IMG/VR virus record: IMGVR_UViG_3300036850_000055
Span: 1 to 22,389 of that record
DNA: 22,389 bases
DNA from: a virus
Strand: one strand, 5' to 3'
Numbering within the stretch: the first letter of the stretch is position 1; the number at the start of each line of letters is the position of its first letter. Made by a program: the position numbers and the translations under genes. Positions 1 through 22,389 of this stretch are shown in pieces. The notes under the pieces are model-generated. The model was not told the DNA's origin. It saw nothing but the letters and a program-made list of their open reading frames with translations, and ran no database searches.

Positions 1-12
1 GTTTCCGTGGCC

Positions 13-39
13 CCCCACCGATGGGAAAAACGGGTGGGG
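13..39 (-). terminator. Hairpin after the HNH gene, probable end of the leftward early unit
   Basis: Bases 13-20 (CCCCACCG) pair with 31-39 (CGGGTGGGG, one bulged G) around a loop that is A-rich on the + strand and T-rich in the transcript. It lies a few bases beyond the HNH stop codon, where a terminator of the leftward early transcript would be expected. There is no T-run after the stem, so it is not a textbook intrinsic terminator. It could instead be a structural element near the packaging site. Confidence 0.45.
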
Positions 40-43
40 TGCC

Positions 44-322
44 TCACCAGTTGCGCGAGCGCAGCGACTTTCGAGGTGCGGGTTTCTTTCCGCGGCCGTA
101 GTTGCCTGTGCACTCGTACCCGTGTGATGCGATCGTGCGGCGCGTACCGTGCGCGGCCTTGAGGTTGGCGGGTGACCATGCGAGGTCGGGCCGTTGGTCG
201 TATGGGATCACGTGGTCTGCGGTGTCTGCTCCGTCGTGTCCGCAGAGCCAGCACACGCCGTGGTCTCGGCGGATGATCCACGCGACGAGGCGCATCCACC
301 GTGGGCCTGATGGTCTGCTCAC
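44..322 (-). CDS. HNH endonuclease, small phage type
   Basis: A 92-residue protein with a zinc-binding HNH nuclease core: a CWLC knuckle (C24, C27), the first catalytic His in DHVIP (H37), then N53 and H58 in NLKAAHGTRR, and a basic C-terminal tail. The GTG start at 322 overlaps the upstream stop as GTGA; a longer ATG start at 379 has no better ribosome site. In HK97 and relatives (known) an HNH protein encoded beside the terminase genes helps the terminase cut cos DNA. Here the gene is last on the minus strand, and if the window ends are joined it sits just before the small terminase, which suggests that packaging role (inference). A free-standing homing nuclease is the alternative. Confidence 0.85.
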   Translation of the reverse strand: MSRPSGPRWMRLVAWIIRRDHGVCWLCGHDGADTADHVIPYDQRPDLAWSPANLKAAHGTRRTIASHGYECTGNYGRGKKPAPRKSLRSRNW

Positions 323-735
323 TGTGCGCCGTGGTGTGGGCAGTGTCGGGCGATGGTGAACCACGAGAGCACGGGGCATCGGGGGTACCACACGGCGTAC
401 GTGTACTCGAGCTCGAGGGGATCGGGGTCCACGTCGTACGGGGTGGTGGGTGATGGTGCGGGTACGACGAGGTACCCGGACTCGGGTGTGTTCATCACGT
501 GGTAGATGCACCGACAGGGGCGGACGGGTGGTGCGCTGTGGTGGGTGGGTTGTCCGGGGTATGCGTGCGCCTCGAGCTCGAGCCGGGCCGGCCACGGGAT
601 CGGGTAGCCGTGCATGATCGCATCGATCGCCCAGTGGTGCCGGGCCGCCGTGATGAATGCCTCGAGCTCAGCTCGGGTCGGGATGTGGAAGGGGTCGGGG
701 TGGCGCACGTGGTAGACGCTGACGGGGTAGCTCAT
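319..735 (-). CDS. Hypothetical early protein, 138 residues
   Basis: I do not recognise this protein. The ATG at 735 overlaps the upstream stop as ATGA and the TGA at 319 overlaps the HNH start as GTGA, so it is translationally coupled on both sides. The N-terminal half carries a helical segment with AELEAFITAARHHW. The C-terminal half is rich in Pro, Tyr and Cys/His, with CRCIYH and a final CPHHG, so a small metal site is possible. There is no signal peptide or membrane segment. Its place between a 96-residue protein and HNH suggests an early or packaging-related accessory role, but nothing more can be said. Confidence 0.7.
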   Translation of the reverse strand: MSYPVSVYHVRHPDPFHIPTRAELEAFITAARHHWAIDAIMHGYPIPWPARLELEAHAYPGQPTHHSAPPVRPCRCIYHVMNTPESGYLVVPAPSPTTPYDVDPDPLELEYTYAVWYPRCPVLSWFTIARHCPHHGAQ

Positions 736-1022
736 CGAACGAGCCCCTCGAGCTGGCAGAACTCCGTGTGTGGCCGGCCGGGTGTCTGGTGGCAGATCCC
801 GCACTCGTCGGACAGGCGGCCGTAGCGTGCGGTCGCCTCGATGGTGCCCTCGTCATTCACGCGGGATATCCGCAGCGATGCGAGGTCGAGTTTGTCCGGG
901 TCGAATCCCTCGAATGCGGTTTGGTCGAATAGGCGGGATACGGCTTTCAGCACCGACGATGCGGTGGTTATCTGGTGGTCTGATACGCCGCGGATGATGC
1001 GGCGGGTGTCTGCGAGTTGCAT
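732..1022 (-). CDS. Hypothetical early protein with C-terminal Cys cluster, 96 residues
   Basis: The ATG at 1022 is preceded by GGAGG at good spacing and the stop overlaps the next start as ATGA. It is the first gene after the repeat-bearing gap at 1023-1174 and so may be first in its own transcript. The N-terminal two thirds look helical. The C-terminus has CGICHQ followed by a further Cys about 12 residues on, so a small zinc site is plausible. No family is recognised. Confidence 0.7.
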   Translation of the reverse strand: MQLADTRRIIRGVSDHQITTASSVLKAVSRLFDQTAFEGFDPDKLDLASLRISRVNDEGTIEATARYGRLSDECGICHQTPGRPHTEFCQLEGLVR

Positions 1023-1123
1023 CGTGCCTCCGGGGTGGTTGTCCACAACGCGGGGCCGGCCCTCTGTGGTTGAGGTGGGACGGGACCACGTTGACCTAGA
1101 TATGGGTATGTACTACTCCTAGG

Positions 1124-1189
1124 CCCCTACAGATTGTGGGTGCTGTTGCCCCCTCAGATCGTAGGGACGAGCCCCTACAGTTTGTGGGG
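1124..1189. repeat. Three related 17-18 bp repeats with flanking AT-rich stretch (origin or operator candidate)
   Basis: CCCCTACAGATTGTGGG (1124-1140), CCCCTCAGATCGTAGGG (1150-1166) and CCCCTACAGTTTGTGGGG (1172-1189) are clearly related and lie in the same orientation; starts are 26 and 22 bp apart. Each is roughly dyad-like at its outer ends (CCC...GGG). The third overlaps the stop codon of the winged-helix gene. Beside them 1091-1120 is about 60% A+T, against roughly one third for the window. Iterons next to an AT-rich stretch and a winged-helix gene suggest a replication origin; operator sites for the downstream 96-residue gene are the alternative. Confidence 0.55.
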
Positions 1190-1534
1190 CCTGCCGATGG
1201 TCAGTTTCCACACCTGACGGGTGCCGAATCCGGGGTTATCCACAACCCTGCACACAGCTCCCGCGCGGACGAGTGCCGCGGTGTGTCGCCTCACCTCCTC
1301 CATCATCCATTTACGTGCGGATTTCGCTTCCGGACTGTCGTCGTGGTCGTTTGGTGGCTTTCTTCCGAGCCCTTCCGAAAGATGTTTCCAGCCACGCCAG
1401 TAATGCCCCGCGGGCTTTTCCGGGTCCGTGCTCGAGTCGAGTGAGTACGTCGCCATGCGAACGAGGAGCTTGAACGGTCCCGGTGGTAGGTGTCCCCAGT
1501 CGTCAGACACGGCGCGTACGAGCTGGTTACCCAC
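1175..1534 (-). CDS. Winged-helix DNA-binding protein, possible replication initiator or regulator
   Basis: About 119 residues. The pattern is that of a winged-helix domain common in actinobacterial phages and plasmids: a GPFKLLVRMATYSLD first helix, YWRGWKHLSEGLGR, a long helix starting near EAKSARKWMMEEV, then LVRAGAVCRVV and a wing ending QVWKLTI. Proteins of this type bind DNA as initiators or regulators (family knowledge; the exact role is not shown here). The start is uncertain: GTG at 1534 overlaps the RusA stop by 8 bases and was chosen for coupling; an ATG at 1561 is possible and neither has a strong ribosome site. The 3' end overlaps one of three iteron-like repeats, consistent with binding next to its own gene. 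Confidence 0.7.
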   Translation of the reverse strand: MGNQLVRAVSDDWGHLPPGPFKLLVRMATYSLDSSTDPEKPAGHYWRGWKHLSEGLGRKPPNDHDDSPEAKSARKWMMEEVRRHTAALVRAGAVCRVVDNPGFGTRQVWKLTIGRPHKL

Positions 1535-2036
1535 GCTCGCGGCCGGGCCGGATCCGCACAACCACGCCGGGACGGCTCAGAACGTCGGCTGAGAGCGTCT
1601 CGCGGAGGATGACGGGGTGAGGGTCCCAATACGCCTTATCGACGTACAGGGGCCGGACCTGAGCGTCGTTGCGCAGCACCCCGGCATCTTGGAGCGCATC
1701 GAGGACGAGCCGCGCGAACTTGTCCGAATCGCCTGCCCCTTGCAGCGTGGGCCACAGCGGGGCACTGTTCGCGACCCGGTGAGCGTTGCGGCCGGTCCCG
1801 TAGTGGCTCCGCGGCCGCGACAGGCTGAACGTCATCTCTACGTAGACGCTCTGGTGTTGGTCGGCCTGCTCGTGCACGAATCGTCGCGCCCCCGCGGTCA
1901 CGATCTCGCGCCACCCCTCGTTGTCCACGGACTCTACGAGCTGGTGTTTCACCTTGCCCCGAGCCCCGATGCACTTCATCGAGCCCTTCGGTTTGGGCTC
2001 CCCGTAGAGCTTGAATCCCCAATGGCGGGTGATCAC
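1527..2036 (-). CDS. rusA: RusA-family Holliday-junction resolvase
   Basis: A 169-residue cytoplasmic nuclease that resolves four-way DNA junctions made during recombination-dependent phage replication. The RusA signature is clear: GEPKPKGS near residues 12-19, GDSDKFARLVLDAL at 102-115 with acidic D103, D105 and D113, then LRNDAQV (D124) and a late conserved Lys (K134). Asp residues in these positions bind Mg2+ in RusA (known). The GTG at 2036 follows AGGAGG at about 7 bases, which decides the start over longer in-frame reading. It works logically with the RecT-like protein and exonuclease upstream, although a hairpin at 2064-2103 separates it from them. Confidence 0.88.
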   Translation of the reverse strand: MITRHWGFKLYGEPKPKGSMKCIGARGKVKHQLVESVDNEGWREIVTAGARRFVHEQADQHQSVYVEMTFSLSRPRSHYGTGRNAHRVANSAPLWPTLQGAGDSDKFARLVLDALQDAGVLRNDAQVRPLYVDKAYWDPHPVILRETLSADVLSRPGVVVRIRPGRERG

Positions 2037-2063
2037 CTGTAGCCTCCTGAGCTGGGTGGTTGT

Positions 2064-2103
2064 GACGGCCCGGCCGATCCGCAGGGGAGTCGGCCGGGCC
2101 GTC
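2064..2103. terminator. Perfect 14-bp hairpin between the Cys/His protein gene and rusA
   Basis: GACGGCCCGGCCGA (2064-2077) is exactly complementary to 2090-2103 across a 12-base loop. It lies directly after the TAG of the 123-residue gene and before the rusA ribosome site, in the only clear gap of this long, overlapping leftward unit. It lacks a U-tract, as many terminators in high-GC Actinobacteria do. It probably ends or attenuates the upstream transcript, so rusA output may be lower than that of recT. Confidence 0.6.
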
Positions 2104-2110
2104 GTCTGTG

Positions 2111-2482
2111 CTACCGGTCGAACGAGTGCGGGCCGTCGTGCCCCGCATCCCGTGTGCACTGCACGCCGCTCGAGATGTTCGGACACTGCGGGGTGTCCTC
2201 GATCCGAGCGTCAGGTACGTCCTCCGGGGTCGAGCGCATCTTGTCACTCGAGGTGATCCCCGCATCGAGGATGATGACGAGCCGCTCAGCGGTGGGCTTG
2301 TACTCCACGTCCCACGCCATGCCGACGAGCTCCTCCGCTACCTGTGCGCTGTACGCGTAGAGCTCGGATTCACCGACCCCGGCCGCCGTACATGCTTGGT
2401 CGATCGCCTCCGCGACGATCGCGACCGCGACCGCCCTCGAGCCGATCGTGATCCGGCCCGGCTTTCGGTTGCCTCGAGCCAC
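2111..2482 (-). CDS. Hypothetical protein with C-terminal C-x8-C-x4-GHxGxH motif, 123 residues
   Basis: The GTG at 2482 directly follows the previous TAG and has GGGGAGG upstream. The N-terminal 85 residues look like a mixed helix/strand domain (VAIVAEAIDQACTAAG, then AERLVIILDAG) with no recognised family. The last 25 residues carry CP-x7-C followed by AGHDGPH, a likely CCHH metal site. The same arrangement, with the same spacing, occurs inside the RecT-like protein of this unit, and related versions occur in two rightward genes. This suggests a shared small binding module. Function unknown. Confidence 0.75.
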   Translation of the reverse strand: MARGNRKPGRITIGSRAVAVAIVAEAIDQACTAAGVGESELYAYSAQVAEELVGMAWDVEYKPTAERLVIILDAGITSSDKMRSTPEDVPDARIEDTPQCPNISSGVQCTRDAGHDGPHSFDR

Positions 2483-2731
2483 CTACAGCACCTCCCCGGC
2501 GATGGACGCTCGCACGAGGCAATCTTTCGCCTCGAGGAGCTTCCGCAGCCCGGCCGTCAGCTCCGGGCTGTCCGGGATCGTGAGGAGCATCCCGACCGCG
2601 AGGGAGCACACAGCCTCCGACGTGACCCGAGCGTGCCCCGTGAGGTGCTCGTACGTGAACCAGCTCGCGACCTGCCGGACCGACTCGTGACGCCCCTCGA
2701 GCGCCTCTGCGAGCTCATCCATCCGAGTCAT
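2483..2731 (-). CDS. Acb2/Tad1-hairpin-like small protein, candidate cyclic-nucleotide sponge
   Basis: An 82-residue, mostly helical protein. The pattern FTYEHL, then about 28 residues to PDSPELTAGLRKLLEAKDC and VRASI at the C-terminus, matches small phage proteins now grouped with the Acb2/Tad1 hairpin domain. Acb2 proteins (known) form oligomers that bind CBASS cyclic nucleotides, and some also Thoeris signals, so blocking host abortive defence. That this protein does so is inference from pattern memory, not alignment; many actinophage members are untested. The ATG at 2731 has GAGGA upstream; a second ATG at 2722 is possible. It overlaps the preceding gene by 17 bases. Confidence 0.6.
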   Translation of the reverse strand: MTRMDELAEALEGRHESVRQVASWFTYEHLTGHARVTSEAVCSLAVGMLLTIPDSPELTAGLRKLLEAKDCLVRASIAGEVL

Positions 2732-3056
2732 CCCCGTCCTCGAGCGCCCCACCGTTGACCTCCTCGAGCGGGAGCGGGTTCTTCCCCGTCCGCTCGTAGA
2801 ACGCCTCCTCCACGGTGCGCCGGAACTCACCGTCCGGCAAGGATCCGTCCGTGGTGATCACCTCCACCTGACGCATCCGCAACCGCGGGACCGTGGTGCC
2901 GGCGTCGTAATCGACCTTCGCCTCCGGTACGTCGAACACCACCCAGCACCCCAACATGAGGGTGTGGTCGTTCGCGATCTCCTCCGCGTAGTGGTCGAGG
3001 CCGTTCCACTCCTCGCCGCCGGGGAGCTTCCCCGACACGCTCACCTTTGCGCTCAC
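2715..3056 (-). CDS. Hypothetical early protein with acidic C-terminus, 113 residues
   Basis: The GTG at 3056 has AGGAGTG upstream at good spacing. The sequence suggests a small alpha/beta protein: MSAKVSVSGKLPGG at the start, strands around MLGCWVVFDVPEAKVDY and RMRQVEVITTDGS, then a helix FRRTVEEAFYERTG and a very acidic end (LEDGDDSDG). No family is recognised and no catalytic motif is visible. It lies between a CxxC protein and the Acb2-like protein in the tightly packed recombination unit. Confidence 0.75.
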   Translation of the reverse strand: MSAKVSVSGKLPGGEEWNGLDHYAEEIANDHTLMLGCWVVFDVPEAKVDYDAGTTVPRLRMRQVEVITTDGSLPDGEFRRTVEEAFYERTGKNPLPLEEVNGGALEDGDDSDG

Positions 3057-3060
3057 GCGC

Positions 3061-3381
3061 TCACTCCTGATCTGTCGGCAACGCCAACTGTTCGGGCCGT
3101 GGCACTTCGGGACACACGTCCTGATGTGGGATCCACAGCGTTTCGTACGACTCGGGGGCAGTACCGGGGATCCGGTGATGCCCCTCGAGACGGTTGTTCA
3201 TCACGGTCGCCGCGATGGTGGCGCGTCGGTCCGTGAGTGGTGCCGGCTTCATCCCGACCGGCACCGAATCCGTGGGGGTGATGAACACCTGACGGGTGGG
3301 TGTCGCGCACTTCGGGCACTCGGAGCGGTCCCACGGCGGGAGAGCAGGCTCCCGCCGCTTGGGCCGCCGCATCCGAGCCAC
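3061..3381 (-). CDS. Hypothetical protein with N-terminal CPKC knuckle, 106 residues
   Basis: The GTG at 3381 overlaps the upstream TAG by one base, with GAGG upstream; an ATG three codons later is also possible. The N-terminus is strongly basic (ARMRRPKRR), followed by a CPKC knuckle near residues 22-25 and a VFITPTDSVPVGMKPAP segment; another Cys comes near residue 90. One CxxC alone does not make a complete zinc site unless the late Cys or a His joins in. The basic start and possible zinc knuckle suggest nucleic-acid binding, but this is only inference. Confidence 0.7.
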   Translation of the reverse strand: MARMRRPKRREPALPPWDRSECPKCATPTRQVFITPTDSVPVGMKPAPLTDRRATIAATVMNNRLEGHHRIPGTAPESYETLWIPHQDVCPEVPRPEQLALPTDQE

Positions 3382-3653
3382 TAGTTCAACCTCGCCCGGC
3401 GCTCGCGCTCCCGGTCAGCGAGCTCGAGCTCGTCCGCGTTGTCGAGCAGGCTCGCCGCCATGTGCCGTACGACGAGGTGGTCCACCGGGCCGTAGAACCA
3501 CACCAACGTCCCGGATTGGTCGTACGCGCGGAAGAACCCTCGAGCCGTCACGCGGTCACCGATGAAATCGAACGCCCCGCTCGCCCCGTCCGGTAGCTGT
3601 GGCTGTGGAATCGCCCTGACCGGGTGATCGTCGGGCAGGTCCTCAGGCTTCAC
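3381..3653 (-). CDS. Hypothetical early protein, 90 residues
   Basis: Not recognised. The GTG at 3653 has GGGAGG upstream and lies 11 bases inside the recT-like gene. The middle (FDFIGDRVTARGFFRAYDQS, then GTLVWFYGPVDHLV) looks like a small beta-rich fold, and the C-terminus is a charged helix rich in Glu, Arg and Leu. There is no membrane segment. Coupling to recT suggests it is made together with the recombination proteins. Confidence 0.7.
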   Translation of the reverse strand: MKPEDLPDDHPVRAIPQPQLPDGASGAFDFIGDRVTARGFFRAYDQSGTLVWFYGPVDHLVVRHMAASLLDNADELELADRERERRARLN

Positions 3654-5385: not shown

Positions 5386-6224
5386 GCGCTCTGCTCCTCC
5401 TCATCGCGTAGCGGCTCGAGCGGTTGCCCGATCCGCGAGTCATCCCGGATCGCGGTGAGGTCGCGTGCCACCTGTAGCACGTACAGGAACTCGGTGAACG
5501 CGTCCTCGTCCGCCTCCACGGGCACGAGGTCTACGCCGTCCGGGGTGATGTGGACGACGTACGCCCCATCGAACATCGGGGTCGGAGTCTCGCTCGAGGG
5601 GCCGTCCGGGTACCACAGGTCCGTATGCCGGTACGCCGCGAGCTGATAGACGTTCTCCTCGTAGATCCGGTTGGTGCGCTTGAAATCCACGAGCGCCCGA
5701 ATCCCGCGACGGCCCAACACCCCGGCGTTGTCGAGGGTGCCGGCGTACCGGTGGGTGACGTTGACGCACGGCACCTCGCCACCCCACCCGACGTACTCCT
5801 CCCGGTCGAGCCACCGAGCGAGCATCTCCGCTTCCGGCCGGGCCTCGTCCGGCACGTACACGTCCTCGCCGCGAACGAGCTTTTCCGCGACCTTGTGGAG
5901 ATCGGTCCCCTTCATCGCCGCGCGCCGTTTCGTCTGAAACTGCACGCCCTTCAGCACCTCGAGCCGCTCGGACACCTCGAGCTTGGACAGGCGCGCCCAA
6001 TGGTCAACGGCGTACTCCGCGGTGACCCGACCGGCCCACCCGGTCAGGCCCGGTTTCGCGATGATGTCGAGCGCGGTGGTGACCCCGATGAGCTTGTGGG
6101 GATCGGTACGGCGGTACCGACCGGGACAGTCGCAGTCGAGCCGGTACGCGTGCCCCCCGGATCCGAACTTGTTGACCTTGAGCCGCGGGCTAGTTGAGCC
6201 GGCTCGAGCCGCCGAAGCGCTCAC
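5382..6224 (-). CDS. PD-(D/E)XK exonuclease, Cas4/RecB-like
   Basis: 280 residues. The nuclease core is visible: GTDLH with H110, E150 in GGEVP, GTLD with D165, then D180-F-K182 (the D-x-K of the motif) and the following helix YEENVYQLAAYRH with Q194. This order is typical of Cas4/RecB-type phage exonucleases, which chew duplex ends to give the single strands that RecT anneals. CDCPG near residues 31-35 might bind metal, but no full iron-sulphur set is seen. The GTG start at 6224 has AAGGAG at good spacing and begins 35 bases inside the preceding gene. It is coupled to recT by ATGA. Confidence 0.85.
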   Translation of the reverse strand: MSASAARAGSTSPRLKVNKFGSGGHAYRLDCDCPGRYRRTDPHKLIGVTTALDIIAKPGLTGWAGRVTAEYAVDHWARLSKLEVSERLEVLKGVQFQTKRRAAMKGTDLHKVAEKLVRGEDVYVPDEARPEAEMLARWLDREEYVGWGGEVPCVNVTHRYAGTLDNAGVLGRRGIRALVDFKRTNRIYEENVYQLAAYRHTDLWYPDGPSSETPTPMFDGAYVVHITPDGVDLVPVEADEDAFTEFLYVLQVARDLTAIRDDSRIGQPLEPLRDEEEQSA

Positions 6225-7235: not shown

Positions 7236-7280
7236 CGGGATCTGTCCTCCTGAGTGGTACTTCACGGTGGGTGGTGGGTG

Positions 7281-7493: not shown

Positions 7494-7500
7494 GGCGAGG

Positions 7501-7530
7501 ACGCTAGACCTCGAACCGGCGACATGTCAA
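7501..7530 (-). promoter_or_regulatory. Candidate leftward early promoter
   Basis: On the minus strand TTGACA (7530-7525) is followed after 18 bases by TAGCGT (7506-7501). The -35 is perfect for the main actinobacterial sigma factor; the -10 matches only in part. Transcription would begin about 1-2 bases before the ATG of the XRE gene, giving a leaderless message, common in Actinobacteria. The -35 overlaps the palindrome GACATGTC, a natural operator position. Confidence 0.5.
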
Positions 7531-7571: not shown

Positions 7572-7605
7572 GGTCTCACCGTTCACTCAACCGAAGGGGA
7601 GCACG

Positions 7606-8242: not shown

Positions 8243-8284
8243 GCTCGCGAGCGTGGATCCCCCCATCGGATCCGCCTCCTGAAA

Positions 8285-8323: not shown

Positions 8324-8326
8324 CGT

Positions 8327-8760: not shown

Positions 8761-8763
8761 AGG

Positions 8764-9492
8764 TCAGCTCGCGGGCTTGGTGTTGGCCGCGATCGTGCCG
8801 AGCACCTTGAGCTCCGCCTCACGGTGCGCGCGGGCCTCGTCCACGAGGGTGTCCGCGGTCCCCTTCTCGTCGCTGAACAGCGCCCGCCCGTACTCGGTCA
8901 GCGCACCCAGTACGCCGGCCTTCACCGCCGCGGTGATCTGCTCCGGAGTCGCCATGTCGAACCAGTCCTCTCCTGATGTTGAGCCGGGCTCGAACGCGCC
9001 GGCCTCGATCAATGCTCGCACCTCGTCACCCGGACAGTCGGTGCCGTCCGGCCGTACCGCGGAGTGGGGCCGGATCGCGGTCCCCTCCTCGTAGATCTTG
9101 CGGAAGTCGGCCACCACGCCGCGCGTGGTCTCGATCATCTCCGGGGTGGGGTCCTCGCCCGTGCCCAGGATCAGCAAGATCGCGCCGTACTCCTCGTTCA
9201 CCTCCTCGTTGCCGTTGGCCCCTGACTGAGTGAGGAGCCCGCGGAGCGTCCACGCGCGGCCGGCCTGATCCACCGCGACTTGATACGCGATATCGGACCA
9301 CCCGCGGTCGTCCATGTGGTACGCCTGCCACCCGCGGAGCGCCTCCGCCACGTCGGCCGCCTTGATCAGCCGCCTCGAGCCCATCCCCGGCCAGTGCAAC
9401 ACCGCGCCCTGCACCCTCGAGGGGGTCAGCTTGCCCGGACCGCCTTCGGGAGCTCGAGCTCCCCACGCGGACCGCGGTAGATACGTCACCAT
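8764..9492 (-). CDS. Endolysin, N-acetylmuramoyl-L-alanine amidase (Amidase_2/PGRP type)
   Basis: 242 residues. It cleaves the amide bond between N-acetylmuramic acid and the peptide stem of the host wall. The zinc ligands of the type-2 amidase fold are visible: H33 in VLHWPG, H143 in RPHSAV and C153 in TDCPG, with YHMDDRGWSDIAYQ as the typical central stretch. Residues 170-242 are a helical tail with no recognised wall-binding domain. An ATG at 9501 touches its own AGGAGG, so the second ATG at 9492, nine bases from that site, is the likelier start. Flanked by two membrane proteins, it forms the lysis group. Confidence 0.9.
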   Translation of the reverse strand: MVTYLPRSAWGARAPEGGPGKLTPSRVQGAVLHWPGMGSRRLIKAADVAEALRGWQAYHMDDRGWSDIAYQVAVDQAGRAWTLRGLLTQSGANGNEEVNEEYGAILLILGTGEDPTPEMIETTRGVVADFRKIYEEGTAIRPHSAVRPDGTDCPGDEVRALIEAGAFEPGSTSGEDWFDMATPEQITAAVKAGVLGALTEYGRALFSDEKGTADTLVDEARAHREAELKVLGTIAANTKPAS

Positions 9493-10495: not shown

Positions 10496-13327
10496 CTAGT
10501 ACGCGAACCGTGGGGTGTCCCACAGCTTGACTTGTGTTCCGGCGTCGTGGCCGCTCACGACACCGTTGACCGATCGAACGACAGGGGTGAAGGTCTGCGG
10601 GCTCGCCGCGCCCGTGATGCCCTGCACGGTGATCCGCTCCCCGTCCACGTCGATATCGAACGGGAACATAGCCGGGTCCGTCGTCCACCGCCCGCCGTCC
10701 GCCGTCGCGACGATCAGCGAGGTCGCCGCGTTGCCGTGGAACACCGTGAGCGTCGAGCTCGGGGAGTCGAACCGCGCGGTCCCGAACTGCCCGACTTGGT
10801 ACGGCTCGCCCGGCGCACAGTTGAACGTGATGACCCATGTCGCGTTGTCGAACGTCTCGGTGTACCCCAACACGATGAGGTCGAGCTCGTCCGGTATGTC
10901 GGCCGCATCGATGTTCTGAATGAGCATCCGGTCGCCCGTGTCGAGCGCGAGGATCGCCTCGAGGAGCGCCGGGTCGTCTTGGATCTCCTGAGCGCCCAGG
11001 TTGAATGTGACCGATGGGAACCGGGCCGCATCGAGCGTGCCGAGCCTGAGCCACCACGAGGCAGCGCCGGGGAGCTGTGCGTCGGTTTCGACGTTGACGG
11101 TTACCTCGTCCTCGTACTGCCCGATACCTTGCGGCGGGTCGAGGGTGCTCATCGGGCCGGTGGTGAGCGCGAGGTTGAACGAGCCGCCGTCACGCCTCGA
11201 GGCGGTCACGTCGTTCCGGGTGCTCTCGTCGTCGTCAACCGGCTCGAACGGTGGCGCGACCACCTTCGCCGCGTAGTCGATCACCACCGCCGGGTCCTGT
11301 GCGTACATGCTCGCCCGCGTCCGGTACAGGAGCGCGAGGTCGTCACGCGTCTCGGTCAGGATCCCGAAATCCGTTGCCTCCGCATCCTTGATCTGTGCGA
11401 GCCGCGGCTCCGCGAACTGTGGCCCCATCGCCGTACTGACCGCCGGGTCACCGACGACGCTGACCGCGATGTTCCCCTCGTCGCACACCCGCTCGATCCG
11501 CTCCGCGGCCGTCTCGCCGGCGTACCCGAACGCGGCCTCTACGGTGTCCGCGATCGCCGGGATCTGCGCCGGGTCCGCGTTCGCCCACATCGCGAGGTGA
11601 GCGATGTTGGTCACGGTCTGGCCGGTGAACCGGGTGTAGAAGAACCGGAACAGCGCCACGCCGTTAGGCGCGTAGCCGGCCATGGTCCCCGACTTCACCA
11701 CGGTCCCGTCGATGTAGACGGCAAAGTCGGTGTCGGCCCCGTCCGCGGTGATCTGGAATCGGCAGTGATGCATGTTCGCGTCTTGGAGCTCGGTGAACGG
11801 CCCGACCACTGAGAACCCGAATTCGGTCCCGGTGTCGCCGGCGCGGAACCGTACCTCGAGCGTGCCGGCGTTGGTGCTGGTGTCGAAGATCAGCCGCCAC
11901 ACGTTCACGTTGTAGTCCTGAATCTCAACGGTCATCACACCGAGAGACGTGGACTGCCACACGAAGTCGAGCGCGTAATTGTCGTCGCCGCTCGCCACGT
12001 CGCCACGCATGTAGGACTCGCCCGTGGCGTTGAGCTCCATCCCCGAGCCGATCCAGCTCGAGCCCATCTCGCGGCCGTACGTGAACACAGGCGACTGTAG
12101 GAACCCCCCGGAGTTGAGGACCTGTTGCGGGAAAAACCGGGTCGAGAGGTAGTAGTTCAACGGGGCGAGGTTGAGGCTGTACGTCGTGCCCTCCGCGCCC
12201 TCGAGCGGGTAGTACGCCGCGAGCGCGTCCACGTTGTCGGACCGGAGGATGAAGTCGCGGAGCCCAGTCTTCACCGGGGCCTTGCCCTGCCCGAGCCGGC
12301 GGAGGATCCCGTTCGCGGTGATCGGGACGTACTTGTCCGAGTGCGACGGATCCCACCGCGGGGGCCACTCCGCGACCTCACCGACGAACCGGGTCCACGT
12401 CTTGCCGTACCAGATCCGGGCCGCGTCCGGGCCGCCGTTGAACGACCATGTGTTGCCCTGAGCATCAACGAACGAGCTCGAGGAGAACGGAACCGGGTCG
12501 AGCTCCTGAGCGCTGAAGTCCGGCGATGCGACCACGGCCCCGCCGATCCCGTTCCGCATCTCGAACCGGTAGAACGTACCCGAGCTCGAGCCGTAGCTCG
12601 CGATGCTCGAGCCGAACGCAGCGCCGACCCGGACCGGAATCGCGTTGTCGAAAATGCTCGTCGTGCCGGCCTGCACGATCGTCGTACCGAACTGAGTCCA
12701 CGGTCCGGCGATGCTCGGAGCGGTGTAGAACGTCGCAGTGTTGCCGCCGGCACCGTTGTCCACATCGAGGGTGACCCGGACCGCCTGACGGCCCGTGCCG
12801 GGGATCGCGATGCTCGACTCAGCTTGCATCGTGGGCGGAGCGTTCACCCCAGTCCACCAGTTGAGCCGCAACCGGCCGGCGACCCCCAGGAGCGACCAAC
12901 CGAGCTGCCCGGTGAAGAATGCGAACTTACTCGCGAGATCCATATTCAGCGTGGCCCAGTCGCCGTCAGGCTCGAGCTCGACTCGGATATCAATGTCGCC
13001 CGTGACCGAGAGCCCCGCGGTGTCGTTCGCCTGAGCCCGGCCGGCACCGTTCACCACCATCCCGAGCGTGGTCGGGTCCTTGACCACCGACACCCGTAGC
13101 GGGGTGTTCCGGCCGAACTCGCCCGCGATCGGGCTGTTTGAGTTGCGCGGGCTGAATACGCCGCCCTCGTTGTTGAGCGTCAGGTTCCCTTGTGACGGCC
13201 CGGCCGCCTGCTCGGTGGCGGATCGGCCGCGCGTCACGGTCACCGGGTCGCGGTTGAGCCGCTTGGTCGAGATGTTCGCCCAGTCGGTAGCCCGGAGCTT
13301 GAGCTCGGTGAGGATCAGGTTTCTCAT
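10496..13327 (-). CDS. Large minor tail protein, probable tail-tip hub with LamG-like domain
   Basis: 943 residues, the largest protein here. The N-terminus (MRNLILTELKLRATDWANIS) resembles the start of distal tail/hub proteins. Residues about 90-260 and again about 390-570 have the jelly-roll style of LamG/concanavalin domains (VWRLIFDTSTNAGTLEVRF, TDFAVYIDGTVVKSGT). The section with DFGILTETRDDLALLYRTR is typical of large minor tail proteins of Streptomyces-type phages. It starts ATGA-coupled to the tape measure. Because no separate distal tail or tail-associated lysin gene follows, it may combine these roles, and it may bind host polysaccharide (inference). Confidence 0.8.
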   Translation of the reverse strand: MRNLILTELKLRATDWANISTKRLNRDPVTVTRGRSATEQAAGPSQGNLTLNNEGGVFSPRNSNSPIAGEFGRNTPLRVSVVKDPTTLGMVVNGAGRAQANDTAGLSVTGDIDIRVELEPDGDWATLNMDLASKFAFFTGQLGWSLLGVAGRLRLNWWTGVNAPPTMQAESSIAIPGTGRQAVRVTLDVDNGAGGNTATFYTAPSIAGPWTQFGTTIVQAGTTSIFDNAIPVRVGAAFGSSIASYGSSSGTFYRFEMRNGIGGAVVASPDFSAQELDPVPFSSSSFVDAQGNTWSFNGGPDAARIWYGKTWTRFVGEVAEWPPRWDPSHSDKYVPITANGILRRLGQGKAPVKTGLRDFILRSDNVDALAAYYPLEGAEGTTYSLNLAPLNYYLSTRFFPQQVLNSGGFLQSPVFTYGREMGSSWIGSGMELNATGESYMRGDVASGDDNYALDFVWQSTSLGVMTVEIQDYNVNVWRLIFDTSTNAGTLEVRFRAGDTGTEFGFSVVGPFTELQDANMHHCRFQITADGADTDFAVYIDGTVVKSGTMAGYAPNGVALFRFFYTRFTGQTVTNIAHLAMWANADPAQIPAIADTVEAAFGYAGETAAERIERVCDEGNIAVSVVGDPAVSTAMGPQFAEPRLAQIKDAEATDFGILTETRDDLALLYRTRASMYAQDPAVVIDYAAKVVAPPFEPVDDDESTRNDVTASRRDGGSFNLALTTGPMSTLDPPQGIGQYEDEVTVNVETDAQLPGAASWWLRLGTLDAARFPSVTFNLGAQEIQDDPALLEAILALDTGDRMLIQNIDAADIPDELDLIVLGYTETFDNATWVITFNCAPGEPYQVGQFGTARFDSPSSTLTVFHGNAATSLIVATADGGRWTTDPAMFPFDIDVDGERITVQGITGAASPQTFTPVVRSVNGVVSGHDAGTQVKLWDTPRFAY

Positions 13328-14466: not shown

Positions 14467-14468
14467 GC

Positions 14469-14873: not shown

Positions 14874-14877
14874 GTGG

Positions 14878-15391: not shown

Positions 15392-15403
15392 CGGTCAGTC
15401 CTC

Positions 15404-15808: not shown

Positions 15809-15809
15809 A

Positions 15810-16810: not shown

Positions 16811-16837
16811 GGTTGCCGCCCTCCCGTGCCGGGTCGA

Positions 16838-18187
16838 TCAGACAGCCGCGGTGACCTGCACGCGGCGGACCGACTTGCTCTGAGTGCCGATCGCGCCGGG
16901 GGTCTGCCGGACGATCACGCCGGTGTAGCCCCAGATACCGAGCACGATGGACTCCGGGCCGCTGACCTCCTCGAACCGGAACCGGAGCATGTTCGACTCG
17001 AACAACACCGTGTCGCCGGCCTTCATCGCGCCGTAGCTCTCCGGGTAGGCCGTGGTGCCGAACCCGTCCGAAGCGATGATGCCGAGCCCGGCGAGCCGGC
17101 CGTCAACCTGCGGGGTGCCGACACCGATGACGTTCATCGGCCCGGCCGACTCCGCCGGCACGAGCGGCCGCCCGGTCGAGTCCTTCAGCTTGAGGAACTC
17201 GCCCCAGCGCCGGACGTTCATCCAGATCAGATCGGCCGGACGCTTGCGGGCCTGACGGACCGCGATCGCGAGGTCGATCACCGAATCGTAGGCCGCGCCG
17301 GCAGCGTCGAACGCGGCCTCGTTCGCGAACGTGGTCACGGCCGCGCCGGCAGCGGTGACGATCGCGCCCGCGACCTTCGCCTCCACCTTGTCGTCGTAGA
17401 CCTCGATCAGGTCCGAGTAGATGAGCTGGTCCACCGCCGGGGTGGACATGTCGATCATCTGACGGCTCACGGTCTGCTTGCCGGCGGTCGGCTTGGGGGT
17501 GACCACGTGAACGTCGGAGTCCCACGCGTCGGCCCCGCCGACCGGGTCGTTCTCGTTGACCTGCTCCGCGACCACCGCGTCGGTGCCGGCCGTCTGCCGC
17601 GGGAGCGTGATCGGCCGCGGGTCGTCCCCGAGCGGGATGTTCCGGACCGCGTTCGCGATCCGCCGGCCCTGCCGGGCGAGCGTCTCGAACTCGTCGGTCA
17701 GCCACTTCGGCGGGACGATGCCGACGCCCTCACCACCGGTGTCGAGCGCGCGCATGTGCTCCGAGAGACGCTGTGCGGACACCTCGTCCTTGTTGACGCG
17801 GGACCGGTACAGGTCGCTGAAGAACGAGTGCTGTCCGCCGTCCTTCGCGCTCCGGTAGTGGCCGGGGTCGCGGTCCTTCGCGCTCGTGCTCGAGCTCTCG
17901 CGGCCGCCGCCCAGCGACCGGACGCGCTCGTCGTTGCTGAGCGTGTCGCCGGCGAGCTCCTCCATCTTGCGGTTCCGCTGTTCGATCTTGGTGAGCTCCT
18001 CGATCTCCTCGAACAGCGACTGAGCCGTGGTGTTCTGCTCGCGTACGAGCGTGGCCTCCTGCTCGGTCAGCGCCCGGCCCTTGGTGCCGTCGCCGTTGTC
18101 GTGCTCGCTCGCGCGGTTGTGGATGCCCTCAATCGAGGTCTTGAGCGCCTCGTACTGGGTGCGCTTCGCCTTGAGGTAGGGGTTCAC
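16838..18187 (-). CDS. Major capsid protein, HK97 fold with N-terminal scaffold region
   Basis: 449 residues. Residues 1-100 are a charged coiled-coil delta/scaffold domain (LFEEIEELTKIEQRNRKMEE), then a linker rich in Ser, and the capsid core from about residue 120: GIVPPKWLTDEFETLARQG, RPITLPRQ, VTPKPTAGKQTVSRQMIDMS, and ending in the strand VLGIWGYTGVIVRQTPGAIG. The protease encoded just upstream probably removes the scaffold region. The GTG at 18187 has GGAAGGA upstream. It is separated from the protease gene by 151 bases with two hairpins, so its expression may be controlled separately. Confidence 0.95.
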   Translation of the reverse strand: MNPYLKAKRTQYEALKTSIEGIHNRASEHDNGDGTKGRALTEQEATLVREQNTTAQSLFEEIEELTKIEQRNRKMEELAGDTLSNDERVRSLGGGRESSSTSAKDRDPGHYRSAKDGGQHSFFSDLYRSRVNKDEVSAQRLSEHMRALDTGGEGVGIVPPKWLTDEFETLARQGRRIANAVRNIPLGDDPRPITLPRQTAGTDAVVAEQVNENDPVGGADAWDSDVHVVTPKPTAGKQTVSRQMIDMSTPAVDQLIYSDLIEVYDDKVEAKVAGAIVTAAGAAVTTFANEAAFDAAGAAYDSVIDLAIAVRQARKRPADLIWMNVRRWGEFLKLKDSTGRPLVPAESAGPMNVIGVGTPQVDGRLAGLGIIASDGFGTTAYPESYGAMKAGDTVLFESNMLRFRFEEVSGPESIVLGIWGYTGVIVRQTPGAIGTQSKSVRRVQVTAAV

Positions 18188-18254
18188 GGTGCAGTCCTTC
18201 CGGGTCGTGGTCGATTCACACGCCGGGGTGTCTGCTGTCCGCCTGACCGGGGTG

Positions 18255-18285
18255 CCCCGGCTCGAGAGGGAAGCTCGAGCCGGGG
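18255..18285. terminator. Perfect 12-bp hairpin between protease and capsid genes
   Basis: CCCCGGCTCGAG (18255-18266) pairs with 18274-18285 across the 7-base loop AGGGAAG. It lies in the 151-base gap downstream of the protease and upstream of the capsid GTG. It lacks a U-tract. Likely roles are attenuation, or a 5' end that stabilises a capsid message. Confidence 0.6.
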
Positions 18286-18307
18286 GGTGTCGCCTCAGGA
18301 GAGCAGG

Positions 18308-18329
18308 GGTGCCGTACGCCTACGGCACC
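18308..18329. terminator. Perfect 9-bp hairpin just after the protease gene
   Basis: GGTGCCGTA (18308-18316) pairs with 18321-18329 across a 4-base loop CGCC, ten bases beyond the protease stop codon. With the second hairpin at 18255 it forms a tandem pair before the capsid gene. Confidence 0.55.
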
Positions 18330-18338
18330 GATGGTAGA

Positions 18339-18953
18339 TCAGAGCAACGGAAGCGGTCGGAGTCCCTCGATGATGCGGCGGGTCTCCTCGAGCGACCGGA
18401 GCGCCAGCTCGTGCGGGTCCTCGTCGGGTTCGAGATCCCACTCCGGGCCGCCGTCCGGGAGCGCGAGCGAGCGTACGCCGGTCATCACCGCGCCGGCCTT
18501 GCCGTACGCGCCGGCCATGACGACGGCCACCTCCGACGCGTCCGCTTTCACCCGCTCGGTGATCGGGCCGCCGGCGTCCGGGACCATCCGGTTACGGCGT
18601 TCCTTGAACCCGACCGAGAGCTCCCGGAGCGCACCGTCGCGGACGAGCTCGAGCGTCTCATCACCCATCGCGGTACGGCTGACGCGCCACTCGCCGTACA
18701 GCCCGGCCGCGTCGTCGCGGAGGAGCTTGGTTGCGCCGATCAGCACGCCGCCGAACGGGAGATGATCCCGAGCAAAGGCGATGCGGTTCGCCGCCCGGAG
18801 CTGGTGGTTGAACGCGCCCCGTGCGAACCGCTCGCGGATTCCCTCGCTCGGGACGTTGATCGTACGGCCGTACGGCACAGCGATGCCGACGATCGTCCGG
18901 CCGTCGCCGTCCGAGCGGACCTCGAGGTCCGGGGTGAACGAGCGGTACAGCAT
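18339..18953 (-). CDS. Prohead protease, HK97 gp4/S78-like
   Basis: 204 residues. The HK97-type protease core is clear: IVGIAVPYGR near residues 21-30, catalytic H64 in ARDHLPFGG, and the catalytic Ser S113 in RELSVGF, followed by EVAVVMAGAY. It cleaves the capsid scaffold region during head maturation and is inside the procapsid. The ATG at 18953 has GAGGAG upstream. It sits between the small Cys-rich gene and the capsid gene. Confidence 0.93.
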   Translation of the reverse strand: MLYRSFTPDLEVRSDGDGRTIVGIAVPYGRTINVPSEGIRERFARGAFNHQLRAANRIAFARDHLPFGGVLIGATKLLRDDAAGLYGEWRVSRTAMGDETLELVRDGALRELSVGFKERRNRMVPDAGGPITERVKADASEVAVVMAGAYGKAGAVMTGVRSLALPDGGPEWDLEPDEDPHELALRSLEETRRIIEGLRPLPLL

Positions 18954-18954
18954 C

Positions 18955-19158
18955 TCAGCTCCTCAGGTCAGCTCGGGTCACGAAGTGTCCGGGGCACAGC
19001 CCGTCCATCGTCGCTTCGCGGTGGCAGGTCTCGAGTCGGCACTCAACCACGTCCGGGACCACGCAGTCGTCGGTGTCAGCCGGCGACTCCGGTGTCGTCG
19101 GGGCCGGTGTCCTCCGGGTTGTCGTCGCCTTGGTCGCCTTGCTCTTGCTCGTCGCCAT
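18955..19158 (-). CDS. Small Cys-rich head-region protein (67 residues)
   Basis: The ATG at 19158 has a strong AGGAGGTG at ideal spacing although it lies 83 bases inside the end of the portal gene, in another frame. N-terminal 30 residues are Lys/Thr/Pro-rich (ATSKSKATKATTTRRTPAP); the rest has ECRLETCHREATMDGLCPGH, with Cys pairs and a final His that fit a zinc site. A protein of this kind often lies between portal and protease in actinophages. Function unknown. Confidence 0.7.
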   Translation of the reverse strand: MATSKSKATKATTTRRTPAPTTPESPADTDDCVVPDVVECRLETCHREATMDGLCPGHFVTRADLRS

Positions 19159-20374
19159 TGTCGGCACCTCCTGTGTCGTCATTCTGCGGTACGGCGGGTG
19201 CCGCCGCGGGGAACTCGTCGCCTCCATCGAGCGGCGGGAGCCCATCGGCCGCCCGGAGCTCGTTCGGGGTGCGCGTCTTGCTCGTGACCTGAATCTGACC
19301 GATCTGAGCCTGTGTCAGGAGGTCGGGCCGGGTGAAGTCGTCCAGATCCGGCAACACCCAGAGGTTCGGGTCCATCCACAGCCCGGAGAGCGCCGCGGTG
19401 AACCGGCCCAGGTAGCCGCGGAGCCCCCACTTCACGAACTTCACGTCCTCCGCGTTGTCGTTGCGGTACGTGCGGTTCGAGGTCTCCGCGCCCAGGTCGG
19501 ACGGCTGTAGCCCGAAGATGAGCGCGGTCTCGAGGAGGCTCATTTTCCGGGCCTCGATGAGCTGTAGCTCGGTGGGGTTCCACGCGAGCGCCTCGAACGA
19601 GGTCGTTGCGTTGAGCACCTGAATTTGCCGGGAGCGCTGGTTCCGGTACCACTGCCGGCGCATGTCGCGCGCCTCGTCCTCTTTCAGATCCGGGTTTTCC
19701 GACTTGAGCAGACCGGACGGAACCCCGTCGCCACTGCCGGCGGCCGCGGCCTGCCGGTTGAGCTCGAGCGCGAGATCGAGCGCGCCGGCCCCTGCCCCGT
19801 TCCACCCGCGGAGGTGCGCCTCGAGGACACCCCACCCGCGTACGTCGGACGGCTGACACGGCCCCTTGATGTGGAAGATCTCCGACCGCGGGTACTCGGT
19901 CCCGCCGATCTGATAGCGGATCGCACCGAGCGGGAGCCCGGTCCGGCCCTCGTACCCGACACGCCGGACCCCGACTTGGTTCGCGGGGATCGGGAGGATC
20001 CCGTCCGGTACGCCGTCCTCGTCCCTCGAGGCGATGAGCCCGACCGCGTTCCCGTGCCAGATCAGATCGAGTGCCCAGCTCGTGAACGTCGTCATGAGCG
20101 ATTCCGGCGGGGCAGGCTGTTGCAACAGGAGCGGCCGCGGGAGCCGGATCCGCCGGTTACGGATCACCCGCCACAGGTCCCAATTGACCGAGCCGATCGC
20201 CTCCGAAATCTTCATCGAGGCGCGCCACGCCGCCGGCAGACCGAGCCCACCGCCGTACACCTGTAGCGGGACGTTGATCGGGTTACCGTCGATGATCATC
20301 TCGAACCCGGAGCCGGCCGCGCGCGAGAGCTGGTCATCGGACTCGGTACGGCGGAACGACTTGCCGAGCCCCAT
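19076..20374 (-). CDS. Portal protein, HK97 gp3-like
   Basis: 432 residues. Typical blocks: LPAAWRASMKISEAIGSVNW (clip/N-terminal region), LMTTFTSWALDLIWHGNAVG, IFHIKGPCQPSDVRGWGVLE, then the GLLKSENPDL and EARDMRRQWY region and EARKMSLLETALIFGLQPSDLG, followed by NRTYRNDNAEDVKFVKWGLR. The last 30 residues are very acidic (Asp/Glu/Gly). The portal forms the DNA entry ring at one capsid corner and docks the terminase. The ATG at 20374 overlaps the previous stop as ATGA. Its 3' end overlaps the next gene. Confidence 0.95.
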   Translation of the reverse strand: MGLGKSFRRTESDDQLSRAAGSGFEMIIDGNPINVPLQVYGGGLGLPAAWRASMKISEAIGSVNWDLWRVIRNRRIRLPRPLLLQQPAPPESLMTTFTSWALDLIWHGNAVGLIASRDEDGVPDGILPIPANQVGVRRVGYEGRTGLPLGAIRYQIGGTEYPRSEIFHIKGPCQPSDVRGWGVLEAHLRGWNGAGAGALDLALELNRQAAAAGSGDGVPSGLLKSENPDLKEDEARDMRRQWYRNQRSRQIQVLNATTSFEALAWNPTELQLIEARKMSLLETALIFGLQPSDLGAETSNRTYRNDNAEDVKFVKWGLRGYLGRFTAALSGLWMDPNLWVLPDLDDFTRPDLLTQAQIGQIQVTSKTRTPNELRAADGLPPLDGGDEFPAAAPAVPQNDDTGGADNGDEQEQGDQGDDNPEDTGPDDTGVAG

Positions 20375-20520
20375 CACAACCACCCGGCCTCAGCCGCGGT
20401 GCCGAGAAGGACCAACAGCGCCCCCGCCACCAGCACGGCCCAGACCGGGCCGGCGAGCACACCCAGAGCGCCGACGAACATGAGCCCGCCGATCGCTTGG
20501 ATCACAACAGATCGCTTCAT
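20374..20520 (-). CDS. Small membrane protein between terminase and portal (48 residues)
   Basis: Starts MKRSVVIQAIGGLMFVGALG and continues with a second hydrophobic stretch, VWAVLVAGALLVLLGTA, so two membrane helices with a short turn. The ATG overlaps the large terminase stop and the TGA overlaps the portal ATG, both as ATGA. Although too short for most callers, the coupling and sequence character support it. Such small hydrophobic genes are met here in actinophages; their role is not known. Confidence 0.7.
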   Translation of the reverse strand: MKRSVVIQAIGGLMFVGALGVLAGPVWAVLVAGALLVLLGTAAEAGWL

Positions 20521-22025
20521 CAAAACACCCTCGATCGTGGTCGTTCCGGCTCGACAACCGGGGGGTGATCGGCACCCCACAGCGCTAGTGTCGCTGACGT
20601 GACCGGGGTGATCGGTTCACCGGTGGTGTCGAACGCGAGTCCCTGACCCAGCTTGCGCCACGCGACGTGTGCGAACGCGTCCACCGTGTCGGCATCACCG
20701 TAGTGGAGCACGGACGGCCGAGCCGCCTTGATCTGCTCGTGAAACCGCACGCACGCCGCGGAGTAGTCCGGCGCGGACACGCGCTGCACCTCGTAGCCGG
20801 CCCGCTCGATCTCGTCCGCCGTGTCTCGAGCGGGTCCGGCGTTGTTGCACGTCACCCGCTTGATGCCGTTCCGCTCGAGGTAGCCGATCACCGCGGCCGC
20901 CACCCACCGAGTGCCGAGCCCATGTTCGATGCACTCCACGAGCCCCACGCCGCCGGCGTCACGCCACCCGGCGGAGATGCTCGCCGCCCGGAGCTTGGGG
21001 TCTACGTCGAACGCCAGGAACGGTGTCGCCGCCGGCGGGATCCGCAGGAGCGTCGTCGTCGCGGTCACGATCGCGGAGTGGAACAGCCGCTCCCCCTCGT
21101 CCTCCGTGGAGATGTTCCCGTACGAGCGCAGCACCCCGACCCGGCCGATCATCTCGTCCGCGAGGTCATCCCGAACGAACTGCTCGAGCTTGTCCGCCGT
21201 CATCAGCGGGTGCACACCGACCGCCGGGTGGTACTCGAGGATCAGCCGGACGAGCTCCTCGTCATCGAGCTCTTTCGTCTTGATCCCGTTCACCACCTCC
21301 GGAACCGACCACTCGAAGTACGCCGTACCGCGGTTCGCGCCCAGCTCGACCGCGCGCCGGCCCTCCTGCCGCTCCTGATTCAGCCAGATCGAGAGCTCGG
21401 TTCCCATCGTGGAGATGAGCCACGCCTGAGCGTTCGTCGTCAGGAACGTCGGCCGGTAACCCGCCTTCATCTTGGTCGCCGCGGCCGCGTCGTACCACCA
21501 GAGCTCATCGAGGCTGAGGAGGTCGATCGCTTTCGAGTGGAGCTTGTCACCGTTGGGCGGGATCGGCACGAGGGTGCTGTTCGTCGGACGCCAGATCAGC
21601 CGCTCTTTGCCGGTGGTCGTGTAGGCCCGGATCTTGCCGGCGAGCGGGCTGAGCTCGAGGAGCCGGCACGTCTCGCGCCACAGCTCGAGCGCCTCCTCGC
21701 CACCCTGAGCGCTCATCCACAGCCGCCGGTCTTTCCCGGTGGCCATGCGGTCAACCTTCACCGCGGTATCAAGCGCCGACTTCCCCGCCCGGCGCTGAAC
21801 CGTCAGAACCACCTTGTCGTACGCCCACCACCCCGTACGCGGATCCACCTCGAGCGCCACGTCAGCGACGTACTGTTGCCACGGCATCAACGGCATACCG
21901 AGCAGGCGCGCCATACGCCCCACCCGCGGGCCGTACGTCAGCCGCTCAGGAGTGCGCCGCGTGGCCCATCTCGGGGCCGCTCCCCACGATTTCGGCCAAC
22001 TCCCGGTCAACATCGTCGCCGTCAT
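20520..22025 (-). CDS. Terminase large subunit
   Basis: 501 residues. The ATPase and nuclease cuts and packages genome DNA at the portal. ATPase: LMPWQQYVADVALEVDP adenine-binding region (about 47-62), Walker A VQRRAGKS (GKS 81-83, an RR variant) and Walker B LLSLDELWW (D173-E174). Nuclease: acidic cluster LAFDVDP with D340 and D342, then a late GLAFDT. The ATG at 22025 has GGGAGG at 8 bases and lies 80 bases within the small terminase gene. The N-terminal RRTPERLTYGP segment is typical of actinophage terminases. Confidence 0.95.
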   Translation of the reverse strand: MTATMLTGSWPKSWGAAPRWATRRTPERLTYGPRVGRMARLLGMPLMPWQQYVADVALEVDPRTGWWAYDKVVLTVQRRAGKSALDTAVKVDRMATGKDRRLWMSAQGGEEALELWRETCRLLELSPLAGKIRAYTTTGKERLIWRPTNSTLVPIPPNGDKLHSKAIDLLSLDELWWYDAAAATKMKAGYRPTFLTTNAQAWLISTMGTELSIWLNQERQEGRRAVELGANRGTAYFEWSVPEVVNGIKTKELDDEELVRLILEYHPAVGVHPLMTADKLEQFVRDDLADEMIGRVGVLRSYGNISTEDEGERLFHSAIVTATTTLLRIPPAATPFLAFDVDPKLRAASISAGWRDAGGVGLVECIEHGLGTRWVAAAVIGYLERNGIKRVTCNNAGPARDTADEIERAGYEVQRVSAPDYSAACVRFHEQIKAARPSVLHYGDADTVDAFAHVAWRKLGQGLAFDTTGEPITPVTSATLALWGADHPPVVEPERPRSRVF

Positions 22026-22260
22026 CGCCGTCGCCTCCCGGATCCGGCGGGACCGGCGTGCCGTCCGGCAACTCAGCCATGAGCGAGCGCAGCTCCCGCG
22101 TCAACCTCACCGCCTCACCCGCCGTCGTCGCCTCATCGAGCCGGGCCGCGACCCGGAGCGCGAGCACGGCGGTCAGCTCGTGCGCCGGCCGCCACCGATC
22201 GTCGGATCGCGCCGATTTCAGCACCCGACGTACCGCCGTAGCGACCTTCAGAGCTCCCAT
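21946..22260 (-). CDS. Terminase small subunit (probable)
   Basis: 104 residues. A helical N-terminal part (VATAVRRVLKSARSDDRW, ELTAVLALRVAARLDEA, EAVRLTRELRSLMAEL) fits the DNA-binding/oligomerising helices of small terminases; the C-terminal part is acidic and Gly/Asp-rich (PGGDGDDGDDVDREL). It is the first gene of the late unit, directly before the large terminase, which it overlaps. The ATG at 22260 has only a weak ribosome site. Assignment is mainly from position. Confidence 0.7.
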   Translation of the reverse strand: MGALKVATAVRRVLKSARSDDRWRPAHELTAVLALRVAARLDEATTAGEAVRLTRELRSLMAELPDGTPVPPDPGGDGDDGDDVDRELAEIVGSGPEMGHAAHS

Positions 22261-22291
22261 AGCGCCGATGGTACGGCCCGGAAACGCGCGA

Positions 22292-22325
22292 GGCGGTCAC
22301 CAGTCCCGCCCGACTGATGACCGCC
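22292..22325. promoter_or_regulatory. 34-bp imperfect palindrome upstream of the small terminase (packaging-site or operator candidate)
   Basis: GGCGGTCACCAGTC (22292-22305) pairs with GACTGATGACCGCC (22312-22325) with one mismatch and a 6-base loop CCGCCC. The region 22261-22389 holds no gene; joined to bases 1-43 it gives about 170 noncoding bases between HNH and small terminase. Cos phages carry their terminase-binding and nicking sites here. No clear late promoter was recognised, so a regulatory or hairpin role is possible. Confidence 0.5.
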
Positions 22326-22389
22326 GATGCGCGGTGAGGCGCGCGCCCGGCGAGCATAGCGCGGCCGCTCGCGGAGAAAAAACCGAAAG

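What the first reader, a model, noticed from the sequence alone, without database searches (positions are those of the whole stretch)
1..22389. Extreme excess of CTCGAG, in all three reading frames
Reading through, I counted about 81 CTCGAG sites, roughly one every 275 bases. Base composition alone would give about 8 at 66% G+C. It is not only the Leu-Glu codon pair: it also appears as TCG AGC or TCG AGG (Ser-Ser, Ser-Arg; e.g. the tail hub at 11196, the lysin at 9373) and as GCT CGA or CCT CGA in at least six genes (2473, 3539, 6203, 14043, 14603, 20825), where the rare Arg codon CGA is used. Two copies also form the stem of an intergenic hairpin (18261, 18274). This looks like selection or bias on DNA itself, such as a modification target, a binding motif, or a host-driven mutational pattern.
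Basis: partly seen in the sequence, partly recalled or inferred. Interest (0 to 1): 0.72.

Follow-up and report, generated by a model that had tools for sequence, protein, structure and literature searches.

The report
Phage genome rich in CTCGAG
A small uncultured phage and its close relatives carry about ten times more CTCGAG than base composition predicts; roughly two thirds of the sites follow from their proteins, codon choice and the purging of many other restriction-type words, but a smaller part is a real, clade-specific preference for this DNA word whose cause is unknown.

Summary
The count is right: 81 CTCGAG in 22,389 bp (7.6 expected from composition, 13.3 from dinucleotides). A collinear relative (82% nt identity) also has 81. 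In coding phase CTC|GAG the count (50) equals what amino acids, codon usage, tetranucleotides and avoided words predict (44-50). In the other two phases it does not: 24 sites against about 5, repeated in K364 (20 vs 5.5) and four more contigs (15 vs 3.1). Intergenic density is as high. Out-of-frame sites are mostly not conserved between relatives (8 of 23), so this is a density bias, not a set of fixed elements. In 91 actinobacterial chromosome samples (2.0 Mb) out-of-frame counts equal the codon null (184 vs 185). Related actinophages go the other way: the Dubu clade has none. Best reading: a phage genome reshaped by restriction-site avoidance, in which CTCGAG is permitted and also favoured at DNA level. 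Avoidance alone does not explain the favouring. Mechanism and host are unproven.

The parts
1..22389 (.). Whole virus record: 81 CTCGAG (3.6 per kb); palindromes GTCGAC, GACGTC, GGCGCC, CCCGGG, GGGCCC, CAGCTG, CTGCAG, AGGCCT, GCATGC absent
406..417 (-). Two adjacent in-frame CTC GAG pairs (CTC GAG CTC GAG)
2473..2478 (-). Out-of-frame site GCT|CGA|G using the rare Arg codon CGA; five more at 3539, 6203, 14043, 14603, 20825
9374..9379 (-). Out-of-frame site C|TCG|AG using the rare Arg codon AGG in the lysin; one of 18 of this phase
11196..11201 (-). Out-of-frame site C|TCG|AGG in the large tail protein gene (PHROG 5313)
18255..18285 (-). Intergenic hairpin whose stem holds two CTCGAG; relative L016 keeps a hairpin here with another stem and has a CTCGAG outside the stem, so the structure rather than the word in the stem is kept
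20520..22025 (-). Terminase large subunit (used to find relatives)
16838..18187 (-). Major capsid protein (Pfam Phage_capsid)

Best explanation
Two layers. (1) This phage clade has cleared its genome of many short words that look like restriction targets (nine hexamer palindromes at zero; CCWGG, CTGGAG, CTCTTC, GACNNNGTC and others strongly depleted). Together with a CTC-rich codon usage this makes Leu-Glu be written CTC GAG and accounts for essentially all 50 in-frame sites (shown by modelling). CTCGAG must be a word that its hosts do not cut, since related actinophages purge it (inferred). (2) On top, CTCGAG is favoured as DNA: about 19 extra out-of-frame sites and about 5 extra intergenic sites, some using the rare codons AGG and CGA (shown statistically). 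These are gained and lost at different places in relatives while the total stays at 81, so what is kept is density, through genome-wide selection or mutation, not particular elements (turnover shown, cause inferred). The most likely cause is a host-linked pressure favouring a safe, perhaps modified, word; that last step is unproven.
For: 81 in both 82%-identical genomes and the same rate in four more contigs. Strict purge across 66 kb. Purge-conditioned sampling gives 43-50 in-frame sites against 50; Leu-Glu 50/55 CTC GAG and CTGGAG 2 against 22. Out of frame 23-24 against 4.7-4.8 with tetranucleotides matched, repeated at 20 vs 5.5 and 15 vs 3.1, while CGTACG and GAGCTC are largely explained by the same model. 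Chromosome control 184 vs 185 out of frame in 2.0 Mb. Turnover: 5/17 and 3/6 out-of-frame sites conserved against 37/50 in frame. L012, homologous at 43-68% aa identity, has CTC/CTG 42/66, tolerates CTCCAG and CTGCAG, and has no CTCGAG excess. CTCGAG is absent from the Dubu-type and almost absent from the Elkhorn-type phage contigs.
Against: Avoidance models leave the out-of-frame excess unexplained (6+18 vs 0+2.7), so a second, unnamed cause is needed. Among 53 phage contigs the number of purged palindromes does not predict the strength of the most enriched one (rho 0.05). Given the flank preferences of the TCGA core, the full palindrome is hardly more common than its half sites predict (162 vs 148), so the favoured unit may be the pentamer TCGAG. 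That the purged words are restriction sites is inferred from their form; no host or enzyme was identified.
Confidence: 0.55

Rival explanations
1. Pure shadow of avoidance and codon usage: every CTCGAG is what is left over once restriction words are avoided.
For: In-frame count fully reproduced. Alternatives for Ser-Ser such as TCC AGC and AGC AGC fall on depleted words.
Against: Out-of-frame 24 vs about 3-5 in all avoidance and tetranucleotide models. TCG AGG (6 of 27 Ser-Arg pairs) has no avoided competitor: TCGCGG is itself above expectation.
Confidence: 0.2
2. CTCGAG is a modification target: a host or phage methyltransferase marks it, and a high density of marked sites helps the phage (for example against a restriction system that spares marked DNA).
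For: Density rather than position is kept. CTCGAG methylation occurs in actinobacteria (Micrococcus luteus SA211, PMC6346199) and is encoded by some giant viruses (PMC7253447). Related phages treat the same word as forbidden.
Against: No methyltransferase recognised among the searched proteins of the window. No modification data. C-to-T neighbours of the site are not depleted (CTTGAG 12 vs 13.2, TTCGAG 22 vs 18.4), so a Vsr-type repair of methylated C is not supported.
Confidence: 0.2
3. Context-dependent mutation or repair bias of the host that creates CTCGAG.
For: Sites are gained and lost at scattered places, also against codon preference. The sampled genomes of one family near in codon usage (that of G010) have 63 out-of-frame sites where about 41 are expected (my sum over).
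Against: 91 chromosome samples together show none (184 vs 185). Host not identified.
Confidence: 0.2
4. A binding site for a phage or host protein, or an oriented architecture motif.
For: Palindromic word, also intergenic; 7 of 8 intergenic sites conserved.
Against: Random spacing (CV 0.98), no dyad extension beyond six bases, out-of-frame sites not conserved, hairpin kept without the word in its stem. A palindrome cannot be oriented.
Confidence: 0.07

Closest known systems
Restriction-site avoidance in phages (Rusinov et al. 2018, PMC6286503)
   Same: Complete loss of palindromes of the orthodox Type II kind; [quoted passage not shown]
   Different: Depletion of asymmetric words (CTGGAG, CTCTTC) is also seen, whereas that paper found no avoidance of Type IIG sites.
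GCCGGC excess in Arthrobacter phages of the Elkhorn type
   Same: Small actinophages with purged palindromes and one very common permitted palindrome (93-125 vs 44-66 codon null).
   Different: Different word; in those phages CTCGAG is nearly absent. Frame and tetranucleotide tests were not run there.
CTCGAG methylation (XhoI-type) in Micrococcus luteus and giant viruses (PMC6346199, PMC7253447)
   Same: Same hexamer, used as a modification target.
   Different: No methyltransferase or modification evidence here.

Membership tests
Restriction-site avoidance (orthodox Type II) | Palindromic restriction-type words absent or far below a proper null | tested here: met
   Nine palindromes at 0 in 66 kb; five (window) or six (K364) at 0 with 5 or more expected by codon null
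Restriction-site avoidance (orthodox Type II) | Host encodes enzymes cutting those words | not testable with these tools
   Host not identified
Vsr-type over-representation of a methylated site | T:G-derived neighbours (CTTGAG, TTCGAG) depleted as the site rises | tested here: not met
   12 vs 13.2 and 22 vs 18.4
Host-like oligonucleotide usage | Chromosomes of possible hosts show the same excess beyond codon null | tested here: not met
   91 samples, 184 vs 185 out of frame; the true host may not be among them
Position-specific regulatory or binding motif | Sites conserved at fixed positions above background | tested here: not met
   Out-of-frame 8/23 conserved against 40-42% for any hexamer; intergenic 7/8 conserved
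Modification target | Modified base at CTCGAG | not testable with these tools
   No read-level data

The most novel reading that the evidence does not exclude
This phage clade is under genome-wide positive pressure to carry a high density of CTCGAG as a DNA mark, independent of position and coding, the reverse of restriction-site avoidance: a word that relatives must purge has become one worth having, for example because it is modified and shields the DNA.
Probability: 0.22. Interest if true: 0.72.

Novelty: new variant of a known kind. Interest (0 to 1): 0.42.

Why it matters
Avoidance of restriction words is well known; over-representation of one such word beyond protein, codon and tetranucleotide constraints is rarely shown. 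If the residual is real selection, it would point to a DNA mark that phages gain rather than lose, and the contrast between related phages that forbid CTCGAG and this clade that favours it gives a direct way to look for the host factor. The purge list is also a fingerprint of the restriction systems its hosts carry.

Tried and rejected
Codon-only explanation: rejected for the two shifted frames. Avoidance-only: two purge-conditioned samplers, still short out of frame. Tetranucleotide composition: short out of frame, though it explains CGTACG. Vsr-type repair: neighbours not depleted. Palindrome-length selection and regular spacing: none. Strand-biased AGCTTG and TTGAGC words: codon context of CTC, not a motif. 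General rule that purged phages over-use a permitted palindrome: no correlation. Host search by tail protein, terminase and codon usage gave only distant prophage genes (24-44% identity) in bacterial genomes and no host. An early hint of chromosomal excess in G064 faded with more sequence (25 vs 17 out of frame).

Full report
What the window is. A 22,389 bp virus record from IMG/VR, held without host. Most genes lie on the minus strand: terminase large subunit, portal, S78-type protease, major capsid, tape measure, large tail protein (PHROG 5313), endolysin, then RecT-like annealing protein, exonuclease, RusA-like resolvase and a Cro/C1-type regulator. Distant relatives by protein are Arthrobacter, Gordonia and Streptomyces phages. 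Close relatives are other IMG/VR contigs: K364 (IMGVR_UViG_3300003320_000364, 21,916 bp, 82% nt identity, collinear) and four shorter ones.

The observation. CTCGAG occurs 81 times and is the most over-represented 6-mer of the genome against a dinucleotide model. K364 also has 81, and L002, L003, L015 and L016 have about the same rate. An assembly accident is unlikely, since the contigs come from different metagenomes.

Nine palindromes are absent from all six records (66.4 kb): GTCGAC, GACGTC, GGCGCC, CCCGGG, GGGCCC, CAGCTG, CTGCAG, AGGCCT, GCATGC, with 9 to 77 expected each from dinucleotides; CTCTTC, TCGNCGA, GACNNNGTC, CCWGG, GAAGAC and GCCATC are absent or strongly depleted. In the window CTGGAG is 2 against 22 and CCTCGG 0 against 26 by synonymous shuffle. 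This is the pattern of restriction-site avoidance.

Splitting the signal by reading frame. Synonymous shuffles keeping junction dinucleotides expect 43.0, 0.3 and 1.6 sites in the three phases; observed 50, 6 and 18. When sampling also forbids the purged words, the in-frame expectation is 43-50 but the other phases stay at 0-0.1 and 2.8-3.7. Fitting penalties to 69 depleted words gives 46.1, 0 and 2.7. Matching all tetranucleotides gives 46.3, 0.3 and 4.4; with purge added, 44.8, 0.8, 4.0 for the window, 47.7, 0.5, 5.0 for K364 (observed 52, 5, 15) and 44.2, 0.6, 2.5 for the other four (observed 51, 5, 10). So the in-frame part is explained and the out-of-frame part is not, three times over, though the three sets share ancestry. 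Intergenic density is also high: 9 in 2,320 bp and 8 in 1,935 bp, against 1.69 per kb by a third-order Markov model of the family.

How the in-frame part arises. Leu-Glu is CTC GAG in 50 of 55 cases and CTG GAG once. CTGG/CCAG is the most depleted tetramer (79 vs 141-211). In L012, a homologous cassette at 43-68% amino-acid identity, CTCCAG and CTGCAG are tolerated, CTG outnumbers CTC, Ser-Ser is mostly TCC AGC, and CTCGAG is near expectation (2 vs 1.4). L012 still lacks GTCGAC, GACGTC and GGCGCC, though with only 3-5 expected each.

How the out-of-frame part behaves. It uses rare codons: 6 of 19 AGG codons sit in TCG AGG, and all 6 xCT CGA pairs are followed by G. Sites are not kept: 5/17 and 3/6 conserved in K364 against 37/50 in frame, yet K364 has its own. 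Given the flank preferences of TCGA the whole hexamer is 162 vs 148, so TCGAG may be the favoured unit. Spacing is random and there is no longer dyad. Of the two hairpins between the protease and capsid genes, the one with CTCGAG is kept in L016 with a different stem.

Controls. In 296 actinobacterial genomes CTCGAG ranges up to 2.8 per kb against 3.6 here. In 91 chromosome samples, 2.0 Mb, the frame counts are 2325, 45, 139 against 2157, 28, 157: no out-of-frame excess overall. Three chromosome samples have none at all where 9-16 are expected. Dubu-type phage contigs have no CTCGAG in their genes, and Elkhorn-type contigs almost none but a GCCGGC excess. The size of the purge does not predict the size of such an excess.

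Interpretation. Layer 1, avoidance plus codon usage, is well supported, although that the purged words are restriction targets rests on their form and on the published pattern (PMC6286503). Layer 2, a DNA-level preference, is shown statistically; its cause is not. Host mutation bias, a modification mark, or avoidance of words not in the model remain possible. The site is a methylation target in some bacteria and viruses, but nothing here shows modification. Searches of the held literature found no report of CTCGAG excess in bacteriophages; the library is incomplete.

Limits. Genes were called by a simple codon model, supported by protein matches for the large ones. Thresholds for the depleted words were chosen on the same data. 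Restriction-site names come from general knowledge. Host unknown. The six family records are related, so their counts are not independent.

Noticed in passing
window 18308-18329 (-): A second hairpin, GGTGCCGTAGGCGTACGGCACC, just downstream of the protease gene, is invariant in all six aligned relatives.
   Followed up: partly
L111-L190 (Dubu-type terminase contigs): None of the Dubu-type contigs analysed has a CTCGAG in its genes, and many lack GCCGGC and CCGCGG as well: CTCGAG appears forbidden throughout that phage group.
   Followed up: partly
L020, L191-L195 (Elkhorn-type Arthrobacter phages): GCCGGC is about twice its codon null (93-125 against 44-66), a second case of one strongly over-used palindrome.
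   Followed up: partly
L012 1-7179: A homologous cassette of lower G+C with a different set of purged words (CGGCCG absent, CTGCAG and CAGCTG present), suggesting fast change of the forbidden list within the family.
   Followed up: yes
window whole: CCTCGG is absent from the window's genes (26 expected), while the six family records together hold 28 copies: a possibly recent, lineage-specific purge.
   Followed up: no
L096, L099, L103 (chromosome samples of G110, G164, G249): No CTCGAG in 20 kb where 9-16 are expected by codon null: strong avoidance in some large actinomycete chromosomes.
   Followed up: no
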